This document shows, piece by piece, positions 23,576 to 51,354 of a DNA stretch of 64,000 bases. Source of the DNA: Elusimicrobium sp. An273 (GTDB lineage: Bacteria > Elusimicrobiota > Elusimicrobia > Elusimicrobiales > Elusimicrobiaceae); NCBI RefSeq assembly GCF_002159705.1, contig NZ_NFJD01000003.1, positions 62,001 to 126,000 on the forward strand, given 5' to 3'. Position 1 is the first letter of the stretch. Every line of letters begins with the position of its first letter. The notes below the pieces were generated by a model. The model saw nothing but the letters and a program-made list of their open reading frames with translations, made no database searches and was not told the origin of the DNA. The translations under genes and the position numbers were made by a program.

Positions 23576-24034
23576 TTAATTGGCTAATTCATACCCGGAA
23601 CTGCGGAATGATTTGCATAAATCAGCCGAGGAAGAGCCGGTGGACACACAGTCTTTCTTGTCCGGGGTGTCGCTTAAGTTGTTGTACAACCGCAGGGTGT
23701 ATTGGTCGTTATCCCCCAACCGACGGGTAATTTCCAAGCGGTTTCCGTTGGATAAATCATACAAGAAGTATTCCGTTGCATACCGCGTGGCGGACGCATT
23801 CCACTCCCCGCCCGAAAGCCGGATATCCAACGACGCCCGCGTGGTGGGATATTCATTCGGCCGCTCGTTAATGGCGCGGTTCATGGAATTTAAAATGGCA
23901 TTCCCGTTTACAAACGCTTCCGACGCGCGGGATTTTTCCACCGCCGTTTCATACTGCGGCAACGCAATGGCAGACAAAATGCCGATAATCAATACAACCA
24001 CCAACAATTCAATTAAGGTAAACCCTTTTTGCAT
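23576..24034 (-). CDS. Type IV pilin-like protein (pilin 1)
   Basis: Pilin or pseudopilin of 152 residues. The ATG at 24034 follows AGGAGGAAAC. A very short leader (MQKG) precedes the prepilin peptidase site G/F and the hydrophobic helix FTLIELLVVVLIIGILS with Glu at +5. The C-terminal region has a Cys pair (KDCVS and DLCKSF) that likely forms the pilin disulfide loop. Monocistronic, with no pilus assembly genes nearby. One of five such genes in the window. Confidence 0.88.
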   Translation of the reverse strand: MQKGFTLIELLVVVLIIGILSAIALPQYETAVEKSRASEAFVNGNAILNSMNRAINERPNEYPTTRASLDIRLSGGEWNASATRYATEYFLYDLSNGNRLEITRRLGDNDQYTLRLYNNLSDTPDKKDCVSTGSSSADLCKSFRSSGYELAN

Positions 24035-24104
24035 GGTGTTTCCTCCTAAAAATAATTCTTCTTTATGGTATAAAAACAACTCCCGCCAACACAAGCCTAA
24101 TCTT

Positions 24105-24133
24105 AAAAACCCCGGCCTCTAAAAGCGCCGGGG
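24105..24133 (-). terminator. Terminator of the multi-PAS gene
   Basis: Stem CCCCGGC/GCCGGGG (24110-24116 with 24127-24133), with T tract in the minus direction (A run 24105-24109). Confidence 0.8.
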
Positions 24134-24157: not shown

Positions 24158-27100
24158 TTAAGATTCCGACGCTATTAAGGCATAGCCGTCAATCTTTCCG
24201 TCGGAGTCTTTGCAGGCAAACACGTCCCACCCCGTATCTTCGTACAGGCCGTTTTCGTGCAGCAAATCCATCCGCACTTGGAACGCATTGCCGGCGGCGG
24301 AATTCTCGGCCGCTTTAAACATCCGTTTGGAGATATCTTCATTGCGGATTACCTCCGTAAAGAAGTCCCTGCCCACGATATTGCTGGTTCGCCGGCCGGT
24401 AATTTCCAGAAACGGCTTATTGACAAACGTAATGGTGTAATCCAAGTCCATCATCACGGCCGGCATTTCCACATATTCCAACGTGCGGGCCAAAGAGCGG
24501 GACGCTTCGCTGAGCATTTTGCCCGTTTGGCGCAGCTCAATGCGCAGGCTTAACAGGCGGGACATAATACCCATCAGCTCCTCGGCTCCCTGTCCAAAGT
24601 CATGGCGCGGCGCGCGGGAAGCAAAACACAACGCCCCCTGCACCTTGCCGGACACATACAGCGGTGCCGCCAGCAACGAGCCAAAGCCTTTTTCTTTATG
24701 CAGGCAATGCGTGCAGGTGGCGCTGGACAGATCCGGGAAAATGACCACATTTCCGTCCGGCACGTCCACCAAGCATTCTTCCACCGGGAAGGTCATGTAG
24801 CGCTCGATATTAAAGTCATTGTCCGTGACATAGACGATATGGCTTTCCAGGCCCAATTTGCCTTGGTCAAAGCGAATGACCAAGCCCACATCGGCCGGGA
24901 ATGTTTTCAATCCAAACGCCAAGATTTTATCCACTTGTTCGGTAATGGAAAGGCCGGGCTCGCTGGCCAGACGGTACAATTCATGGATTTTCTCGTCGTA
25001 TGCGTGCTGTTCGGACATATCTTTCACCCACAGCACCGTTTCGGCGCGGCCGGTAATCGGAGTAACGGTTGCTTCAAAATAATGCAAGGTACCCGATACT
25101 CGCCATTCAAATTCAAACCGCGTGCTGACATTGATGGACAACGCTTCCTTAATGGCGAACAACGCCCGGGAAGCCGCTTCCTGCGGCCAATACGTGCCCG
25201 GCTTTTTATCCAAAAACACTTTGGAGGCCTGGTCATTGTCAAAATACGCCAAATTGGAATATACTTCCAGCACACGTCCGTCGCTGTCCGTTTTTAAATA
25301 CAACCCCGGCAGCGCCTGCCGCACGCTTTTGAGTTCTTGGGCTTCCTTGGAATCTTTAGACACCTCATCCAATTCTTCGGACAAATCCCGCACGACCACC
25401 AAGGCGGCATCTTTGCTGGGCAAGTCCAGCGCGGTTAGCACCACGTGGGCTTCAAAAGCAGACCCGTCTTTCTTGCGAACGGAAAGCTTAAACGACGTTT
25501 TCCCTTCCAAAGCCAGTTCTTCCTGGGCATGATCCAGAATTTCTTTGCAGCGGCTGGAATTATGTTCTTTATCAAAGAACAAATCTCTAAACGGCATATG
25601 CACCAATTCGTCGTGCGTGAAACCCAACTTGCGGGAAAGGAACTTGTTGGCCTGCTCAATATGCCCGAAACGGCCGTTTTCAAACAAGACCGAGAAAACC
25701 ACCCCTTCCGTGGCTTCCAGCAAGGCGTTTAACTGGGCGGAACGCTCCTCCAGAATTTTCATAATCTGACGGTGGAACGCCATATTGCGCAAGACGAATA
25801 AATACCGCCCGTCCGCTTCTTTTACGGCCGTCAGCCGAATGGCCGTATTTTCCAATCCGCTGGCCAGGTTAATATGATATTCCCGGTTGGCAAGCGAGCC
25901 GTCCTGCTGCAGCGTTTTTAAATCTTCTTCCAGCCGCGGCAGGGAGTCCGCATCAAACAAGCGGCGCAAATCCTGCCCGATCAGCTCGTCTTCCTCCAAT
26001 TGGCACAGGGAGCAAAATAAATCATTGCAAACTTCTATTTTCCAGCCATCTCCACACAAAGCGTACGGCTCACTATTGGGCAACACCAACATCTCTTGCG
26101 AAGTTTTGCTAATAATCATCGGCGGAGCCGGCGGTTTAGGCGCCGTATGTTCCTGCGGTTTAGGCGCAGCGGGCGCTTCCGGCTGTTTGGGCGCGGCCGG
26201 CGGAGGCGGAACAACCGGGGCGGATTTTGCTTCTTTCCGCTCCAAGAACACCACGTAATCGGCCTCTACGGTGCCGTCTTTTGCGTCGCGCTTATTAATC
26301 GGCACGAAACTCACCGAAAGCGGCAATTTTCCAGTTCCTTCAATCCGGCCCGGGAACATTTTAGCCGCCCGGTCAAAGTCAAACACATAATCCATATGAG
26401 CGGGCTGTCCGGCACGCAGCTGCTTGCGCGCCGCCAAGGAAACGGCCGGTTTCATATAGACGTTTCGGTAGAAGTTTTTGTCCGCGTCCGTAAAATCAAA
26501 CATTTTCCGGCACGCTTCATTCATCACGCTGATATAGCCTTTGTGCGACAGAATAAAAGCGGGCGTAACGCTTTTTTCAAACGCGGCGCGGAAGCATTCC
26601 CGCTCGGTTTTCACTTCCCGCAGCATCCGGTTGGAAGACGTTACATCGCGCACGAAGCACAGCACAATGCGCCGGCCCAAGTATTTCGAGGCCACCGCCG
26701 CAAACTCCGTTTCCACTTCCTGCCCGCCTTTCTTGAGAAAATGAACATCAATGGCGGAAGAGGCATCGTCCGCCCCGGAAACCACGGCGTCATACTTGTC
26801 TTTCAGGAACATCTGGTGGTCTTCGGCCACCATATCCAAAATTTTCTTTCCGGTTACTTCTTTTACATCTTCATAATTTAAGATATGGCACAAGGCGCGG
26901 TTGGCATAAATTATTTTTCCGTCTTCCAGGATGATAATGCCTTCGCGGGCGTTTTCCACCAGCAGGGTGTTTTTGTCGCTGGCTTCGCGGATTTGCTTTT
27001 CCATTTTGGTCTTGGCCGTAATATCTTCCGATACCACCAACAGACAATTGGGCGTGCCGTCCACATTAAACACAGGCGTTTTTACCGTGTGCATAATTTT

Positions 27101-29260
27101 TACGCCTTCATTGGCGGTAGAAATCAGCTCTTGCGGGATATCCTGTTCTTTTTTGCTTTCAAACACGCGCAAGTCCGCTTCCCGCAGGAACTCCGCCTGG
27201 TCTTTGTTAATATCCACCCGGTACGAAGTCCGCCCGATGACCGATTCGGCCATTACGCCAAAGAGTTCCTCGCTCTTCTTATTCCACAAGATGTATTTTC
27301 CGTCGTAATCTTTAACCGACAGCGAAACCGGCAGGTTATTGATAACCGTCTGCAGGAAGTTTTTGGCGTCAATAATGGCTTTTTCCTGCGCTTTCTTTTC
27401 GGTAATATCATCGGCCACCGTCAGCACCATAAACGGTTTGCCTTCTTTATCAAACACCGGGGCCTTAATTAAATGCAGCAAAATTTTGTTCCCGCGCAGC
27501 GTGGTATACCACTCTTCCGGGAATTCCACCGTTTTGCCGTCTTTAAAAATGGCCTTTTCGCGCTGGCCGTAAAAATCGTCCTTGGCCAGATATTCCTGCT
27601 CATCGGGGAATAATTCGTGCGCGCGGCGGTTGACAAAGGACATCTTATCATCCAGCCCGCGTGCATAAATGGCCACAGGCACCTGATCCAGCAAGGTCTG
27701 CAGGAAGTTTTTGGTTTCCACCAAGGCCCGTTCCTGCGCCCGTTTTTCGGTAATATCTTCCACCAGCGTTACCACAAATTGCGGCTCGCCGTTGCCCTCC
27801 TCGGACACGGGTACTTTTACCATATGCAACAGTTTCTTTTCCCCGCCGCCGGTAAGATACTCTTCTTCCGGTATGTCCAGCGTTTTGCCGCTTTCCAGCA
27901 ACGCTCTTTCCCGTGCGATGTATTCATGCACCTGTTCCGGCGTTTCGTGCGGCAACGAGCCGGTAGAGTCAAACGCCTTATCCGACACTTCGCCAAAAAT
28001 TTCTTCGCACTGCTTGTTGCGCAGCAGCATTCGGCCGTCCGCCGCACGGGCATACAACCCGATAGGCGCGTTTTGCACGATGGCCGATAAGAAACTGTTG
28101 GCCCGGGCCACTTCTTTTTCTTGGCGGCGGCGGTCGGTAATATCCTCCACAATGGTCAGCACCAACGGTTTCGGCCCCGCATCCATCAGCGGGACTTTAA
28201 TCATATGCAGAATTTTTTCATTGCCGGCATGATCCACATACGGCTCTTCCGGATAATCTTTAATTTTCCCTTCACTTAACACCTGCTGCTCCCGGGTATA
28301 ATGAAAAGAAACGACATCCTTATCCTGATGCGGATGCGGGCTGTTGACGCATTTTACGTCCGTTTCGCCCAGCACTTTCATGCTTTGGCGGTTAAAAAAG
28401 GTCATCTGGTTATCACAGTCCCGCGTGTATAAGCCCAGCGGCACATTGTCCAGCACGGCGCGCAGCAACGTGCGGTTTTGCAGCAAATCCTGCTCGTAGC
28501 GCTGGCGCATGGTCACATCTTCGTAAATGGTTAAAATGGCTTTATTTTTATTGTTTTCCGACGGCGTAAAAACTTTGGTGACAGACAGGGTGCGCTCTTC
28601 CCCTTTTGCGTCTTTATACGAAAGCAGCACGTTTTCCCGCGGGCGTTGTTTGTCGCGCACCTGTTCGTCCAATCGCTGCACGGAAGCGACGATTTCTTTC
28701 GGCAAAAATTCATATACCGAATGATTGTGCGTTTGTTCGGCCTTAAAACCGAAAATCTTTTCCGCCGCCGTATTCCATAACGTACAAACGCCCGCCAAAT
28801 TTTGCACGGTAACGGCCACGGGATAATTGTTGATGACCGAACTCAAAAAACTTTTTTCGGCATTCAGCTGTTTAAAATGGGGCACAAATTCCAACGTCAG
28901 CATAATAAACGGCGTGGAAGCCAAAAAGCTGGCCCCCGCACTGACGTAGACGGCATCCGCTTCCCGGTTGACTAACTGGATGATTGTTTTATTGGGCTCT
29001 TTTTCTTCCGCCATCGCGCGCACTTTTTCCATTGTAAGTCCCAGCCGCTCCACGCCGGTGCCGTTTAAATCCGAAATTTCCGTACGCAAAACGGAAGCGG
29101 CCCCCGCATTGGCAAACACGATTTTGCCCGTCGCGTTTAACAGCAAAATAGCCGTAGGAAACTGCTGCAGAAAAGCCAGCATTTCCGGCGTAAGCGTTTT
29201 GATTACCTGTTCGGCAGGGAGATCTTTCTTGGAAAAAAACGAGAAAAAGTTATTGGACAT
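24158..29260 (-). CDS. Giant multi-PAS/GAF protein without an output domain
   Basis: Cytoplasmic, 1,700 residues, no signal peptide or membrane segment. By inspection it has about 12 PAS domains: roughly 20-130, 136-255, 260-385, 387-515, 517-635, 637-765, 767-890, 893-1005, then a proline/alanine-rich linker (about 1009-1046), 1050-1165, 1170-1300, 1305-1425, a GAF domain (about 1430-1580) and a last PAS to the end. PAS 3-6 are near-copies with the recurring ends IVEDITDRR, LVEDITEKR, VADDITEKK, and VSEDITAKT, implying internal duplication. The GAF has a CTHC motif near 1513-1520. No HisKA/HATPase, GGDEF, EAL, PP2C or HTH domain is seen; the gene ends ALIASES with its own terminator. GAGGG precedes the ATG. 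Function: an input-only sensor or scaffold, inferred. Confidence 0.85.
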   Translation of the reverse strand: MSNNFFSFFSKKDLPAEQVIKTLTPEMLAFLQQFPTAILLLNATGKIVFANAGAASVLRTEISDLNGTGVERLGLTMEKVRAMAEEKEPNKTIIQLVNREADAVYVSAGASFLASTPFIMLTLEFVPHFKQLNAEKSFLSSVINNYPVAVTVQNLAGVCTLWNTAAEKIFGFKAEQTHNHSVYEFLPKEIVASVQRLDEQVRDKQRPRENVLLSYKDAKGEERTLSVTKVFTPSENNKNKAILTIYEDVTMRQRYEQDLLQNRTLLRAVLDNVPLGLYTRDCDNQMTFFNRQSMKVLGETDVKCVNSPHPHQDKDVVSFHYTREQQVLSEGKIKDYPEEPYVDHAGNEKILHMIKVPLMDAGPKPLVLTIVEDITDRRRQEKEVARANSFLSAIVQNAPIGLYARAADGRMLLRNKQCEEIFGEVSDKAFDSTGSLPHETPEQVHEYIARERALLESGKTLDIPEEEYLTGGGEKKLLHMVKVPVSEEGNGEPQFVVTLVEDITEKRAQERALVETKNFLQTLLDQVPVAIYARGLDDKMSFVNRRAHELFPDEQEYLAKDDFYGQREKAIFKDGKTVEFPEEWYTTLRGNKILLHLIKAPVFDKEGKPFMVLTVADDITEKKAQEKAIIDAKNFLQTVINNLPVSLSVKDYDGKYILWNKKSEELFGVMAESVIGRTSYRVDINKDQAEFLREADLRVFESKKEQDIPQELISTANEGVKIMHTVKTPVFNVDGTPNCLLVVSEDITAKTKMEKQIREASDKNTLLVENAREGIIILEDGKIIYANRALCHILNYEDVKEVTGKKILDMVAEDHQMFLKDKYDAVVSGADDASSAIDVHFLKKGGQEVETEFAAVASKYLGRRIVLCFVRDVTSSNRMLREVKTERECFRAAFEKSVTPAFILSHKGYISVMNEACRKMFDFTDADKNFYRNVYMKPAVSLAARKQLRAGQPAHMDYVFDFDRAAKMFPGRIEGTGKLPLSVSFVPINKRDAKDGTVEADYVVFLERKEAKSAPVVPPPPAAPKQPEAPAAPKPQEHTAPKPPAPPMIISKTSQEMLVLPNSEPYALCGDGWKIEVCNDLFCSLCQLEEDELIGQDLRRLFDADSLPRLEEDLKTLQQDGSLANREYHINLASGLENTAIRLTAVKEADGRYLFVLRNMAFHRQIMKILEERSAQLNALLEATEGVVFSVLFENGRFGHIEQANKFLSRKLGFTHDELVHMPFRDLFFDKEHNSSRCKEILDHAQEELALEGKTSFKLSVRKKDGSAFEAHVVLTALDLPSKDAALVVVRDLSEELDEVSKDSKEAQELKSVRQALPGLYLKTDSDGRVLEVYSNLAYFDNDQASKVFLDKKPGTYWPQEAASRALFAIKEALSINVSTRFEFEWRVSGTLHYFEATVTPITGRAETVLWVKDMSEQHAYDEKIHELYRLASEPGLSITEQVDKILAFGLKTFPADVGLVIRFDQGKLGLESHIVYVTDNDFNIERYMTFPVEECLVDVPDGNVVIFPDLSSATCTHCLHKEKGFGSLLAAPLYVSGKVQGALCFASRAPRHDFGQGAEELMGIMSRLLSLRIELRQTGKMLSEASRSLARTLEYVEMPAVMMDLDYTITFVNKPFLEITGRRTSNIVGRDFFTEVIRNEDISKRMFKAAENSAAGNAFQVRMDLLHENGLYEDTGWDVFACKDSDGKIDGYALIASES

Positions 29261-29455: not shown

Positions 29456-30034
29456 ATGAAAAAAGCCGCCGCGCTGATTGCCCTTTTTATCGGGGGAGCC
29501 TTCGTTGTAACCGCCGCTCAAACCGCTTATAAACCGCAGACAATCCGCCAATCCCCGCAGTATCTTTCCACCGATCCGGCCCTGGTGGAAGACACCTGCC
29601 CCGGGCACGACATTTTAAACCGTTTTACCTGCAGCAAAAAACAAAGCCCCGGCTATTCCTGTTTTGACGTCTATATGGTGCAGGGCGACCCAATAGACGC
29701 CGAACGCTACACCCTGCTTGACCAAAGCATTACCCTCGAAAATTCCTCCGCCCAGCCCAGCTGCACGTTTGAAAACGAACTGACCTGCGAAAACTTTTTG
29801 CAGGCGCTTAATTACAATTTGGATTTTTCTTGGTTTATCTCCAATTTTCCTTCTTCCTCTTTTCCGCAGTGCGGCGAAACCTATTCCTGCACGCGCATTG
29901 CCTGCATGCGCCCCCTGCCCCCGGCCGCGGACGGCTCCCCCCGCTCCCAAAAGCTTTCCTGCGTGTTTAAGAAAAACCAGATTTTCTTTTTGGGGGCCGA
30001 AATTTCCTGCCAGGACAAAAACGCCGCCAATTAA
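29456..30034 (+). CDS. Exported cysteine-rich protein of unknown function
   Basis: Not recognised. The ATG at 29456 follows GGGAGGA and gives 192 residues with a signal peptide (MKKAAALIALFIGGAFVVTA). The mature part holds ten cysteines (for example FTCSKK, SCTFENELTC, CGETYSCTRIACM), an even number that fits five disulfides, so the protein is probably periplasmic or extracellular. It stands before the pterin operon but that operon seems to have its own promoter. Confidence 0.75.
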   Translation: MKKAAALIALFIGGAFVVTAAQTAYKPQTIRQSPQYLSTDPALVEDTCPGHDILNRFTCSKKQSPGYSCFDVYMVQGDPIDAERYTLLDQSITLENSSAQPSCTFENELTCENFLQALNYNLDFSWFISNFPSSSFPQCGETYSCTRIACMRPLPPAADGSPRSQKLSCVFKKNQIFFLGAEISCQDKNAAN

Positions 30035-37256: not shown

Positions 37257-38453
37257 TTATTTGCTTTTTAATAAATACGAGCTATACTTATTATCGCTTA
37301 CACACGTTGCATTTCCCCCAGAGGACCCTTCAGGATAGTGTTTCTGCGCTTTAAAACTCGTTCTGCCATAGGAAATGGTATAGTGAACACCCTTTCCTTG
37401 GAAAGTAGCCTCGGCATCGGACAAGCAGACGTTAAACGTATACGGGTGTCCCAAATCCCAATCACCATTATTTAACCAGCTGTTATATGCGCTTTTCAAC
37501 CCGCCAAAAAATTTTGCAATTTGAGAAGATTTAGGCACATAATACTTCCAACGCTGACTTTGGGAAAGGCTGCTGTTGCTAGAAGACAACGCATAACGTA
37601 TATCAGCCCCTCCTCCATAAGGAATATTTGCTTTGCAGGGGAAAATGACTCTCTGATAAGATCCGCAAGGCATTGTATACGGATCACAACCATCCCCCAC
37701 TTGATACAGATGAATCGTTCCAAAAGACATATCGAGCATACTGCTTGTGGTTCCACTTCCATCCAGCCAAATATCCAAACACGTCTGACTGGGCGTTCCC
37801 GTGTATTTAACCAAAGGGTTGCTATCGCAGGTATCCCCGCTATCTAGGCCAGACGGGTGTTCAAAACGCCCGGTATCGGGATTATAACGCACCATATATG
37901 TAGTTTCATCGATATCTTCCGCTTCAGAAATTTTATAATCGCAAGTATATGAGTTATTCCACTCCATATTTTCCTTGCTGCCCGTGCCGGAAGTTTCCAC
38001 CTGGCCTGGAATAGAAAGGGCATCCGCTTTGGCCCCCAGCACTTCGGAAGAATCCAAATACAGCGTGTCCGTTACATTGCTCTTAGCCATTACGGCGTCT
38101 TCCAGCGTCACTTCGTTTGCCATCAATCGGCCGCCCTCTAAGGTAGCTCCGCTGGCTACTTGCATCGTACCTGACACCCGATATTCCGGCACCGTGCCGC
38201 CCAGGGTAGCTCCGTTTTGTAAATGCATGGTGTAAATATAGGCGTTCGCTCCGGACAGGGTAACAAGCCCCGTAGAAATACGTCTATTGCAAAAATTAAC
38301 CAAAGGAGCACTTACCGTAGCGGTAGGATCCGCCGTTTCCAAGGAGGCAAAAGTTCCCACGGGAGAAGCCAAAGTAGTAACGAACTGAAGGCTCTCTGCC
38401 CGGCACAAGTTGCCAAACAGCAAAACCGTCGTCAATAAGAAAAACTTTTTCAT
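37257..38453 (-). CDS. Large exported protein of unknown function
   Basis: Not recognised. The ATG at 38453 follows GAGAGGAAA and gives 398 residues with a signal peptide (MKKFFLLTTVLLFGNLCRAE). Residues about 60-140 have the short Thr/Val/Gly-rich periodic strands (NGATLGGTV, SGATLEGGRLMAN) of a beta-solenoid; the rest is Ser/Tyr/Gly-rich with about ten cysteines, suggesting disulfides. Codon use is more AT-rich than in neighbours. Could be a surface or pilus-associated protein; this is a guess from the adjacent pilin gene. Confidence 0.65.
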   Translation of the reverse strand: MKKFFLLTTVLLFGNLCRAESLQFVTTLASPVGTFASLETADPTATVSAPLVNFCNRRISTGLVTLSGANAYIYTMHLQNGATLGGTVPEYRVSGTMQVASGATLEGGRLMANEVTLEDAVMAKSNVTDTLYLDSSEVLGAKADALSIPGQVETSGTGSKENMEWNNSYTCDYKISEAEDIDETTYMVRYNPDTGRFEHPSGLDSGDTCDSNPLVKYTGTPSQTCLDIWLDGSGTTSSMLDMSFGTIHLYQVGDGCDPYTMPCGSYQRVIFPCKANIPYGGGADIRYALSSSNSSLSQSQRWKYYVPKSSQIAKFFGGLKSAYNSWLNNGDWDLGHPYTFNVCLSDAEATFQGKGVHYTISYGRTSFKAQKHYPEGSSGGNATCVSDNKYSSYLLKSK

Positions 38454-38544
38454 AATTTCCTCTCTTAATTTTTTCTGCAAAACAGCCTATCTTATATAGT
38501 ATGCAGATAAAAGCAAAGAAAATCAACCTCTTTGTCCGGCCGAT

Positions 38545-39069
38545 TTAAAAAGGGGTTACGCCCTCTTTATACAAATCCAGCGATTTGCAAATTTCAATGC
38601 TGCTTTCATTCGGGCCCGTACACGCCAACGAGGCGCCTTTTCCGCCCGTGCCGCGCACATAGGGATTCCAAATTCTATACTGGTATTTTTGTCCGCCCAA
38701 ACGTCTGGCTACCACGCCGGGGCAATCCGTTCCCGGGATAATGGCATTGCTGGCCGAGTGAATAATAAATTCAAAATCCTTGGTTTCAATGGTAGACTCA
38801 TCCGCGCTTAAATGGCCGGGAAACGAAATGGCCAATTTTTTAAAAGAGCGCGGGCAGGCATTAAGCCCCGTTCTTCCGGCCGCATAGGCGTAGACGGCGT
38901 CGTTAAGCGCCTTAATTCCCGCCATAGCCTCCACCGCGCGGGCGCGCTCAATAGAGCGCGTATAGTTCGGCAAGGCTACCGCCATCAGCACGCCGATAAT
39001 CAGCACGACGGTTAACAACTCGATTAACGTAAACCCTTTTTGAAAAAGATGCTTTTCCGGTTTTTTCAT
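38545..39069 (-). CDS. Type IV pilin-like protein (pilin 2)
   Basis: Pilin or pseudopilin of 174 residues. GGGAGG precedes the ATG at 39069. Leader of 12 residues ends KG before FTLIELLTVVLIIGVLMAVA (Glu+5). Four cysteines in the C-terminal part (NACPRS, TDCPG, LACTG, IEICKS). The last pair before the C-terminus resembles the D-region disulfide. Lies just upstream of the exported 398-residue protein in the same direction (91 bp gap). Confidence 0.87.
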   Translation of the reverse strand: MKKPEKHLFQKGFTLIELLTVVLIIGVLMAVALPNYTRSIERARAVEAMAGIKALNDAVYAYAAGRTGLNACPRSFKKLAISFPGHLSADESTIETKDFEFIIHSASNAIIPGTDCPGVVARRLGGQKYQYRIWNPYVRGTGGKGASLACTGPNESSIEICKSLDLYKEGVTPF

Positions 39070-50040: not shown

Positions 50041-51354
50041 ATGCGTCAATTACTTTTGGTGTCTATTATCTTGCTCACATTTCTTAGCCCGGTATATGCC
50101 CAGCTGAAACCCACGCGCGGCCTGATTAAAGCGCTTACTTCCACGCCGGCCGCCGCCCCTTCCAAAACCGTTTCCAAAGCCCTTCCCAAGGCGGCCGCCA
50201 CTTCGTGGGGCATCGAGGGTATGCGCTCTACGGATGAAATGGAAGCTTTGTACTGCCCGCCGGCAGCGGTGCAGGAATCCTTTCGCTGTTCGCCTCAAGC
50301 CGTCATTCTGGATAAATACGATCAAATGTTCAACTACGGGGCGCCGCTTGTCAGCGCGGTAGAAATTCCCTCTCCGGAAAGAGCCCTCTATATTAAACAA
50401 GCCCGCGCGGCGCTGATGGCTCCGTTTCCCGATATTACCCCCACCGACCATTTGGTTCATTACTACAAACTAAGCTCCGCCTTGGTAGGCCAATACCAAG
50501 ACCTGTACCAGCAGATTTACCAATTTCACCTCTATATCCTCAAACGGCTGAAATTTTCCTTGGCTTCCAGCGCCCCTCAATGGACGCCTACGGAAAAACA
50601 AGAATTTGACGCCGAACTGACCCAGGTAGACACCGCCGTGCAAGATATGCTGGCGCATATGGGCGGCTTAGACCCCGCATTGGAACGGATTATGACGGAC
50701 ATTCAATGGAGCCGGGAATTAATTTCCAATATGCCGGGCCAGTTTGTACTGCAGGATATCAAACGCACCGAGCCTTTTAACCTGAACCAATACTGCCTGT
50801 TTTCCGCACCGGGCATGTCGCCGCGCCACGCCATCCGCAACGATGATTTGTTTTTTAATCCGGCGCTGGCCCGCCAAACGGCCGAACAATTCTGCAGCCA
50901 GCTGCCGGCCAATTTGAAAGTGGCCGTGCTCAACGATTCCCCGCGCTACACGGGCCAATATGAAAACTGGACGCAGGAAGGCGTTTTTACAAACGGGCTG
51001 ACGGTAAGCACTTTTCTGTCGGTCAACGACTTTTTGCGTGTTCACCGTCAACAGCCTTTTGACATCATCCTGACGGATTACTTCATCCCGGGCGGCGGCG
51101 GGAACCTGCTGGTAAAATTGCTTCGCTCCGAGCGGGATTTTACCCCCGTCATTCTCCATTCTTACGCCGGAGAAGGGCACAATGCCTGGGAAATAACCCG
51201 CCCGAAAGAATCGCTTCAGAAAGAATATAACCTGGGCTATGACGCATTCTTGCCCACCAACGACGATTTCTTCTCTTCCCGCGGCTATCTGTACATTTTA
51301 GAAGGCCTGCGCAATTTTTATGCGGCCCAAAAGCTGCGCCCGCAGCGCAGATGA
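50041..51354 (+). CDS. Exported protein with a C-terminal receiver-like (REC) domain
   Basis: 437 residues with a clear signal peptide (MRQLLLVSIILLTFLSPVYA). The middle (about 80-270) is helical and unrecognised. Residues about 291-430 read like a response-regulator receiver: LKVAVLNDSPRY (acidic residue near strand 1), FDIILTDYFIPGGGGNLLVKLLR with the phospho-acceptor-like Asp346, VILHSYAGEG (strand 4 Ser), and YDAFLPTND where active receivers have the conserved Lys. An exported receiver would be outside the reach of cytoplasmic kinases, so it is probably a non-phosphorylated binding module. GGAGGGG site precedes the ATG. Confidence 0.7.
   Translation: MRQLLLVSIILLTFLSPVYAQLKPTRGLIKALTSTPAAAPSKTVSKALPKAAATSWGIEGMRSTDEMEALYCPPAAVQESFRCSPQAVILDKYDQMFNYGAPLVSAVEIPSPERALYIKQARAALMAPFPDITPTDHLVHYYKLSSALVGQYQDLYQQIYQFHLYILKRLKFSLASSAPQWTPTEKQEFDAELTQVDTAVQDMLAHMGGLDPALERIMTDIQWSRELISNMPGQFVLQDIKRTEPFNLNQYCLFSAPGMSPRHAIRNDDLFFNPALARQTAEQFCSQLPANLKVAVLNDSPRYTGQYENWTQEGVFTNGLTVSTFLSVNDFLRVHRQQPFDIILTDYFIPGGGGNLLVKLLRSERDFTPVILHSYAGEGHNAWEITRPKESLQKEYNLGYDAFLPTNDDFFSSRGYLYILEGLRNFYAAQKLRPQRR

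What the first reader, a model, noticed from the sequence alone, without database searches (positions are those of the whole stretch)
24158..29260. 1,700-residue protein of about 12 PAS domains and one GAF with no output domain
Sensor arrays of this size normally end in a kinase, GGDEF/EAL, phosphatase or DNA-binding domain. Here the last PAS runs to the stop codon, there is no transmembrane segment, and a bona fide terminator follows, so it is not simply truncated. Four consecutive PAS units are near copies. It may be a soluble scaffold that integrates signals and hands them to a partner in trans, a design not described to my knowledge.
Basis: partly seen in the sequence, partly recalled or inferred. 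Interest (0 to 1): 0.75.

Follow-up and report, generated by a model that had tools for sequence, protein, structure and literature searches.

The report
Giant PAS-only sensor array protein
A family of gut bacteria keeps nearly all of its PAS sensor domains in one huge protein that has no output part of its own, so it probably senses several signals and passes them to a separate protein, most likely a kinase.

Summary
Window 24158-29260(-) encodes 1,700 residues: 12 PAS domains, one GAF, a proline-rich linker, and no output domain, transmembrane segment or catalytic motif. An intrinsic terminator follows. Two details were overstated: the four "near copies" (PAS3-6) are 27-44% identical, and sensor-only proteins acting in trans are already described on a smaller scale (MopJ, NreA).

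It is not a truncation. Orthologues occur in 64 of 66 genomes of its genus and in three other genera of one Elusimicrobia family, including what appears to be Elusimicrobium minutum. They span 1,196-1,836 aa, end after the same final PAS, evolve under purifying selection and are never fused to a kinase or GGDEF domain. In all ten array-bearing genomes tested, every PAS above the curated cut-off lies in this one protein. In a relative without the array, PAS domains are spread over many frames.

Three of this genome's six histidine kinases lack any sensor domain. The best explanation is a detached sensor hub docking on such kinases, but no partner is shown. The most conserved part is the PAS6-linker-PAS7 junction, not the C-terminus. 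GAF cysteines conserved across three genera suggest a metal or redox site. A cysteine-rich exported protein adjoins the gene in 44 of 53 genomes.

The parts
24158..29260 (-). PAS/GAF array protein (F0), 1,700 aa, no output domain
29225..29260 (-). N-terminal Phe-rich segment MSNNFFSFFSKK (aa 1-12), predicted helix; FSFFS-like motif kept in most orthologues of the genus and in the E. minutum genus; replaced by amphipathic helices in genus g12
28868..29197 (-). PAS1 (aa 22-131)
28487..28861 (-). PAS2 (aa 134-258)
28106..28483 (-). PAS3 (aa 260-385), first of four related repeats
27722..28105 (-). PAS4 (aa 386-513)
27362..27721 (-). PAS5 (aa 514-633); missing or copy-variable in about a quarter of orthologues
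26981..27361 (-). PAS6 (aa 634-760), best conserved unit
26891..27385 (-). Conserved core: PAS6, its helical linker and start of PAS7 (aa 626-790), with MHTVKxP and EDITxK..ME motifs conserved across genera; proposed partner-docking region
26621..26980 (-). PAS7 (aa 761-880)
26237..26620 (-). PAS8 (aa 881-1008), weak by sequence, PAS fold by prediction
26102..26236 (-). Proline/alanine-rich disordered linker (aa 1009-1053)
25757..26101 (-). PAS9 (aa 1054-1168)
26003..26056 (-). Four-cysteine cluster in PAS9 (C1069, C1078, C1083, C1086), conserved as a set in the own genus only
25361..25756 (-). PAS10 (aa 1169-1300)
24995..25360 (-). PAS11 (aa 1301-1422), weak by sequence, PAS fold by prediction
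24527..24967 (-). GAF domain (aa 1432-1578)
24626..24775 (-). GAF cysteine/histidine site (C1496, C1516, C1519, H1521, C1545); C1496 and C1516 conserved in three of four genera
24161..24517 (-). PAS12 (aa 1582-1700), runs to the stop codon
24102..24133 (-). Intrinsic terminator after the gene
29456..30034 (+). F1: exported Cys-rich protein of unknown fold (192 aa from the second Met), next to F0 in 44 of 53 genomes of the genus; lipobox-like N-terminus in one clade

Best explanation
It is a stand-alone sensory hub. Shown: a chain of 12 PAS and one GAF, predicted to be joined mostly by helices, with no output, kept under purifying selection across one bacterial family, and holding every PAS domain above the curated cut-off in the array-bearing genomes tested. 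Inferred: the chain probably dimerises along its helices, as most PAS proteins do. Several units, with the cysteine-bearing GAF (and PAS9 in this genus) as the best candidates, bind cofactors or small molecules or sense redox state. The sum of these inputs is read at the strongly conserved PAS6-linker-PAS7 core by a separate protein. The most likely readers are the histidine kinases that have no sensor domain (the 373-aa REC-HisKA-HATPase, the 333-aa one-TM kinase, the 250-aa kinase), so that sensing and catalysis, usually one protein, are split in trans. The N-terminal Phe-rich or amphipathic helix may hold it at the membrane or on its partner.
For: No output domain by profile, motif or predicted fold. 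Orthologues in four genera, same end, no fusion. dN/dS 0.06 against the 92%-identical orthologue, low in every segment. All PAS hits above the curated cut-off lie in this ORF, in its own genome and in nine others from four genera; the array-less relative G169 has 28 hits in many ORFs. Three of six own-genome kinases are sensor-less. A sensor-less one-TM kinase sits directly upstream on the same strand in G070. Outside its genus the protein keeps 50-69% identity at residues 601-800 against 20-40% in most other parts. GAF cysteines conserved. Precedents for sensor-only proteins controlling kinases in trans: MopJ-DivJ (PMC4432633), NreA-NreB (PMC8774646).
Against: No physical or genetic partner shown. 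The one-TM kinase is adjacent in one genome only and is missing from several array-bearing genomes with high completeness (G255, G073, G140, G003, G113), so it is not an obligate partner. Four GGDEF proteins are also possible readers. The most consistent neighbour is an exported protein, not a kinase. Two genomes carry an in-frame stop in the array and two of the genus lack a match, though these are draft assemblies.
Confidence: 0.6

Rival explanations
1. Same sensor hub, but the reader is the c-di-GMP machinery: the array regulates the GAF-GAF-GGDEF, REC-GGDEF or Cache-like GGDEF-EAL proteins by direct contact.
For: The genome has four GGDEF proteins. The GAF-GAF-GGDEF and REC-GGDEF proteins appear soluble from their sequences.
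Against: Two of the four (961- and 809-aa frames) have their own extracytoplasmic sensor regions by inspection, and the REC-GGDEF already has a receiver input. No gene adjacency seen.
Confidence: 0.15
2. A spatial scaffold or polarity organiser: it mainly localises signalling or envelope proteins (as MopJ and PodJ do in Caulobacter) and its PAS domains are protein-binding modules more than ligand sensors. The neighbouring exported protein F1 would belong to the same envelope process.
For: Long helix-linked array with a disordered proline-rich hinge and a candidate membrane-binding N-terminal helix. F1 is next to it in 44 of 53 genomes, in two chromosomal contexts. MopJ is a polar PAS protein that binds DivJ (PMC4432633).
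Against: Cysteine sites in the GAF and PAS9 are conserved as if they bind something. F1 is absent from the other genera apart from one marginal hit, and one genome has F1 with no array match.
Confidence: 0.15
3. A relic of a PAS kinase that lost its catalytic end and is decaying, or an assembly artefact.
For: No output domain; two orthologues have an in-frame stop and two have large internal deletions (G248; G036 at a contig end).
Against: 64 of 66 genus genomes and three more genera keep it with the same end; dN/dS about 0.06; own terminator; no kinase fragment directly downstream in any of the contexts read.
Confidence: 0.03

Closest known systems
MopJ (Caulobacter single-domain PAS protein, PMC4432633)
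   Same: PAS protein without an output domain that works by contact with a kinase (DivJ) and affects downstream regulators
   Different: 165 residues, one PAS_5 domain; here 12 PAS + GAF of other Pfam PAS families and no sequence relation shown
NreA (stand-alone GAF nitrate sensor of NreB, PMC8774646)
   Same: Sensor-only protein that binds a kinase and sets its activity in trans; GAF fold
   Different: A GAF protein encoded beside its kinase; the kinase also has its own Fe-S sensor
Multi-PAS histidine kinases (up to 19 PAS in one cyanobacterial kinase, PMC10468136)
   Same: Long tandem PAS arrays
   Different: They carry the kinase in the same chain; none is present here or in any orthologue
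PpsR, DosP, FixL, NifL, phytochromes (solved structures)
   Same: Among the best structural matches to the two halves, through their PAS and GAF parts
   Different: All have, or belong to proteins with, an output part (HTH, EAL, kinase, GHKL); identity only 10-20%

Membership tests
PAS sensor histidine kinase | HisKA (DHp) and HATPase_c domains in the same protein | tested here: not met
PAS sensor histidine kinase | Orthologues with a fused or frameshifted downstream kinase | tested here: not met
   all complete orthologues end after the last PAS; no kinase fragment follows in the contexts read
PAS/GAF domain proteins | PAS and GAF folds recognised by profile and predicted structure | tested here: met
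MopJ-like single-domain PAS proteins | One PAS_5 (PF07310) domain, about 165 aa | tested here: not met
   12 PAS, no PAS_5 match; MopJ definition
MopJ-like mechanism (acts on a kinase in trans) | Physical interaction with a histidine kinase | not testable with these tools
   needs pull-down or reconstitution
Short LOV photoreceptors | Flavin-binding NCRFLQ motif in a PAS | tested here: not met
Fe-S or metal-binding PAS/GAF sensors (NreB-like) | Conserved cysteine cluster able to bind a cluster or metal | tested here: inconclusive
   clusters conserved, spacing not matched to any known site, binding not testable
NifL-type anti-activators | C-terminal GHKL ATPase-like domain | tested here: not met
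   C-terminus is GAF-PAS

The most novel reading that the evidence does not exclude
A whole bacterial family has pooled its PAS sensing into one output-less giant that serves several sensor-less kinases at once: a central shared sensor in place of one sensor per kinase.
Probability: 0.3. Interest if true: 0.85.

Novelty: new variant of a known kind. Interest (0 to 1): 0.62.

Why it matters
Two-component signalling is usually described as one sensor fused to one kinase. A conserved protein that holds about a dozen sensory domains and no output, in genomes whose kinases partly lack sensors, would be a natural split of sensing from catalysis. It would make testable whether PAS signals pass between proteins and whether one sensor can feed several kinases.

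Tried and rejected
Decayed or truncated kinase: rejected. Hidden output domain in weakly scoring stretches (PAS8, PAS11, Pro-rich linker): rejected by segment scans and fold prediction. Rosetta-stone fusion in the array-less genera g15/g16: their multi-PAS kinases match the array only as generic PAS, so no fused ancestor was identified. One-TM sensor-less kinase as the obligate partner: rejected, because several array-bearing genomes lack it. LOV and c-type haem motifs: absent; a hit of the last PAS to photoactive yellow protein lacks the chromophore cysteine as far as I can tell from memory. Literature searches for PAS-only arrays found no description; the library holds open-licence papers only.

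Full report
WHAT IS THERE. The minus strand of the window carries one open frame, 24158-29260, of 1,700 residues. Pfam and NCBIfam recognise only PAS-fold families and one GAF. Scanning the protein segment by segment gives PAS matches for units at about 22-131, 134-258, 260-385, 386-513, 514-633, 634-760, 761-880, 881-1008, 1054-1168, 1169-1300, 1301-1422 and 1582-1700, and a GAF at 1432-1578. PAS8 and PAS11 are weak by sequence. AlphaFold2 on ortholog alignments shows PAS folds in all twelve places, mostly preceded by a long helix, a GAF, and a disordered proline-rich hinge at about 1012-1050 (mean pLDDT 82, residues 1050-1700, mean pLDDT 77, residues 1-1050). The relative placement of the domains is not reliable (pTM 0.39 and 0.29). 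Structure searches match DosP, PpsR, FixL, NifL and phytochromes through their PAS and GAF parts. There is no transmembrane segment, no DHp, HATPase or GGDEF motif (one chance 'EAL' tripeptide at 1372), and a strong intrinsic terminator follows at 24102-24133.

IT IS CONSERVED AS IT IS. Every one of 36 other genus genomes in the first sample has a match, most of them full length. In the family-wide search 64 of 66 genomes of the genus match the C-terminal half, and so do genera g12, g13 and g14; g15 and g16 do not. G090 is a single contig of 1,643,562 bases, which I recognise from memory as the size of the Elusimicrobium minutum chromosome; record titles of close relatives name uncultured Elusimicrobiales and UBA1436. 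The complete orthologues aligned have 1,196-1,836 residues, end after the same last PAS and carry no output motif. N-terminal PAS number varies: PAS5 is missing in about a quarter, and G248 has a 1,081-aa version without a match to PAS9-11 and the GAF but with PAS12. dN/dS against the 92%-identical orthologue is 0.06 overall and 0.04-0.06 in every segment. This rules out a truncated or decaying kinase as a general explanation.

THE GENOME'S PAS DOMAINS ARE IN ONE PROTEIN. With TIGR00229 every match above the curated cut-off in the window's own genome lies in this frame. The same is true in nine further genomes of genera g1, g12, g13 and g14, while G169 of genus g16, which lacks the array, has 28 matches spread over many frames. 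Caveats: weak PAS-like regions below the cut-off exist, for example in the NarX-like kinase (PAS_4, E = 2e-4), and one genome of the genus (G013) also has a separate PAS kinase.

CANDIDATE READERS. The own genome has eight HATPase hits: six histidine kinases plus two that read as a GyrB-like and a MutL-like protein. Of the six kinases, two have Cache-like and HAMP regions, one is NarX-like, and three have no sensor domain: a 373-aa REC-HisKA-HATPase, a 333-aa one-TM HisKA-HATPase and a 250-aa HisKA-HATPase. There are four GGDEF proteins. In G070 a sensor-less one-TM kinase, the best match there to the window genome's 333-aa kinase at 40% identity, lies directly upstream of the array on the same strand, 114 bases apart; in three related genomes it lies roughly 15-17 kb away. 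That kinase is missing from several array-bearing genomes, so it cannot be the only partner.

WHERE THE CONSERVATION LIES. Between genera the protein keeps 50-69% identity at residues 601-800, the PAS6-linker-PAS7 core with 'MHTVKxP' and 'EDITxK..ME' motifs, against 20-40% in most other parts. I infer that this core, not the C-terminus, contacts the partner. In the GAF, C1496 and C1516 are kept in three of four genera and C1519-x-H1521 in g1 and g12; PAS9 has four cysteines conserved as a set in the own genus only. These are the best candidates for a metal, Fe-S or redox-thiol site; nothing here shows binding. The N-terminus carries an FSFFS-like motif in most orthologues of the genus and in the E. 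minutum genus, and clearly amphipathic helices in g12 (best 11-residue window reached by 1-16 of 500 shuffles there, but by 22 to more than 400 of 500 in g1), so membrane or partner docking is possible but weakly supported in the own genus.

A CONSERVED NEIGHBOUR. F1 (29456-30034, +) is an exported protein with about ten invariant cysteines and no Pfam match. It is found in the own genus only, apart from one marginal hit. It lies within 600 bases of the array in 44 of 53 genomes, 29 divergent and 15 codirectional, in two different chromosomal contexts; it is elsewhere in 9, five of these on another contig. G107 has F1 without a detected array. A shared process or shared regulation is likely but unproven.

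HOW IT MOST LIKELY WORKS. A detached sensor hub: several PAS/GAF units take up signals, the helical chain carries the state to the core, and a kinase without a sensor reads it in trans. Precedents for the principle, not the scale, are MopJ with DivJ (PMC4432633) and NreA with NreB (PMC8774646). A survey of PAS domains reports two per protein on average and up to 19 in single kinases, and names kinases as the usual bacterial carrier (PMC10468136). I found no description of an output-less array of this size; the library searched is not complete.

Noticed in passing
window 50041-51354 (+); also L097, L098, L099: A family of proteins with a signal peptide and a C-terminal receiver-like (REC) domain; the phosphoacceptor-like Asp is kept and the Lys switch seems lost. 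A receiver fold on an exported protein would be odd.
   Followed up: no
window 29456-30034 (+): F1, a genus-specific exported protein with about ten invariant cysteines and no Pfam family, lipobox-like in one clade; next to the PAS array in most genomes.
   Followed up: partly
window 37257-38480 (-); L120, L124, L130, L066, L071, L074, L076: Exported 'TTLASPVGTF'-type proteins recur close to the PAS array gene in several genera; function unknown.
   Followed up: no
window 23576-24094 (-) and 38545-39069 (-): Pilin-like proteins (N_methyl motif in the first) with diverse C-termini; many such genes lie around the array gene in related genomes.
   Followed up: no
genome G013, contig C15:12187-14925 (not held as a locus): G013 carries an extra 1,075-aa frame with PAS, HATPase and receiver matches, not seen in the other genomes of the genus; it may be a recent acquisition.
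   Followed up: no
L078 (G022) and G185:C5:82529-84460: Two draft genomes have an in-frame TAA inside the PAS array; in G022 it splits off the last PAS as a separate frame.
   Followed up: no
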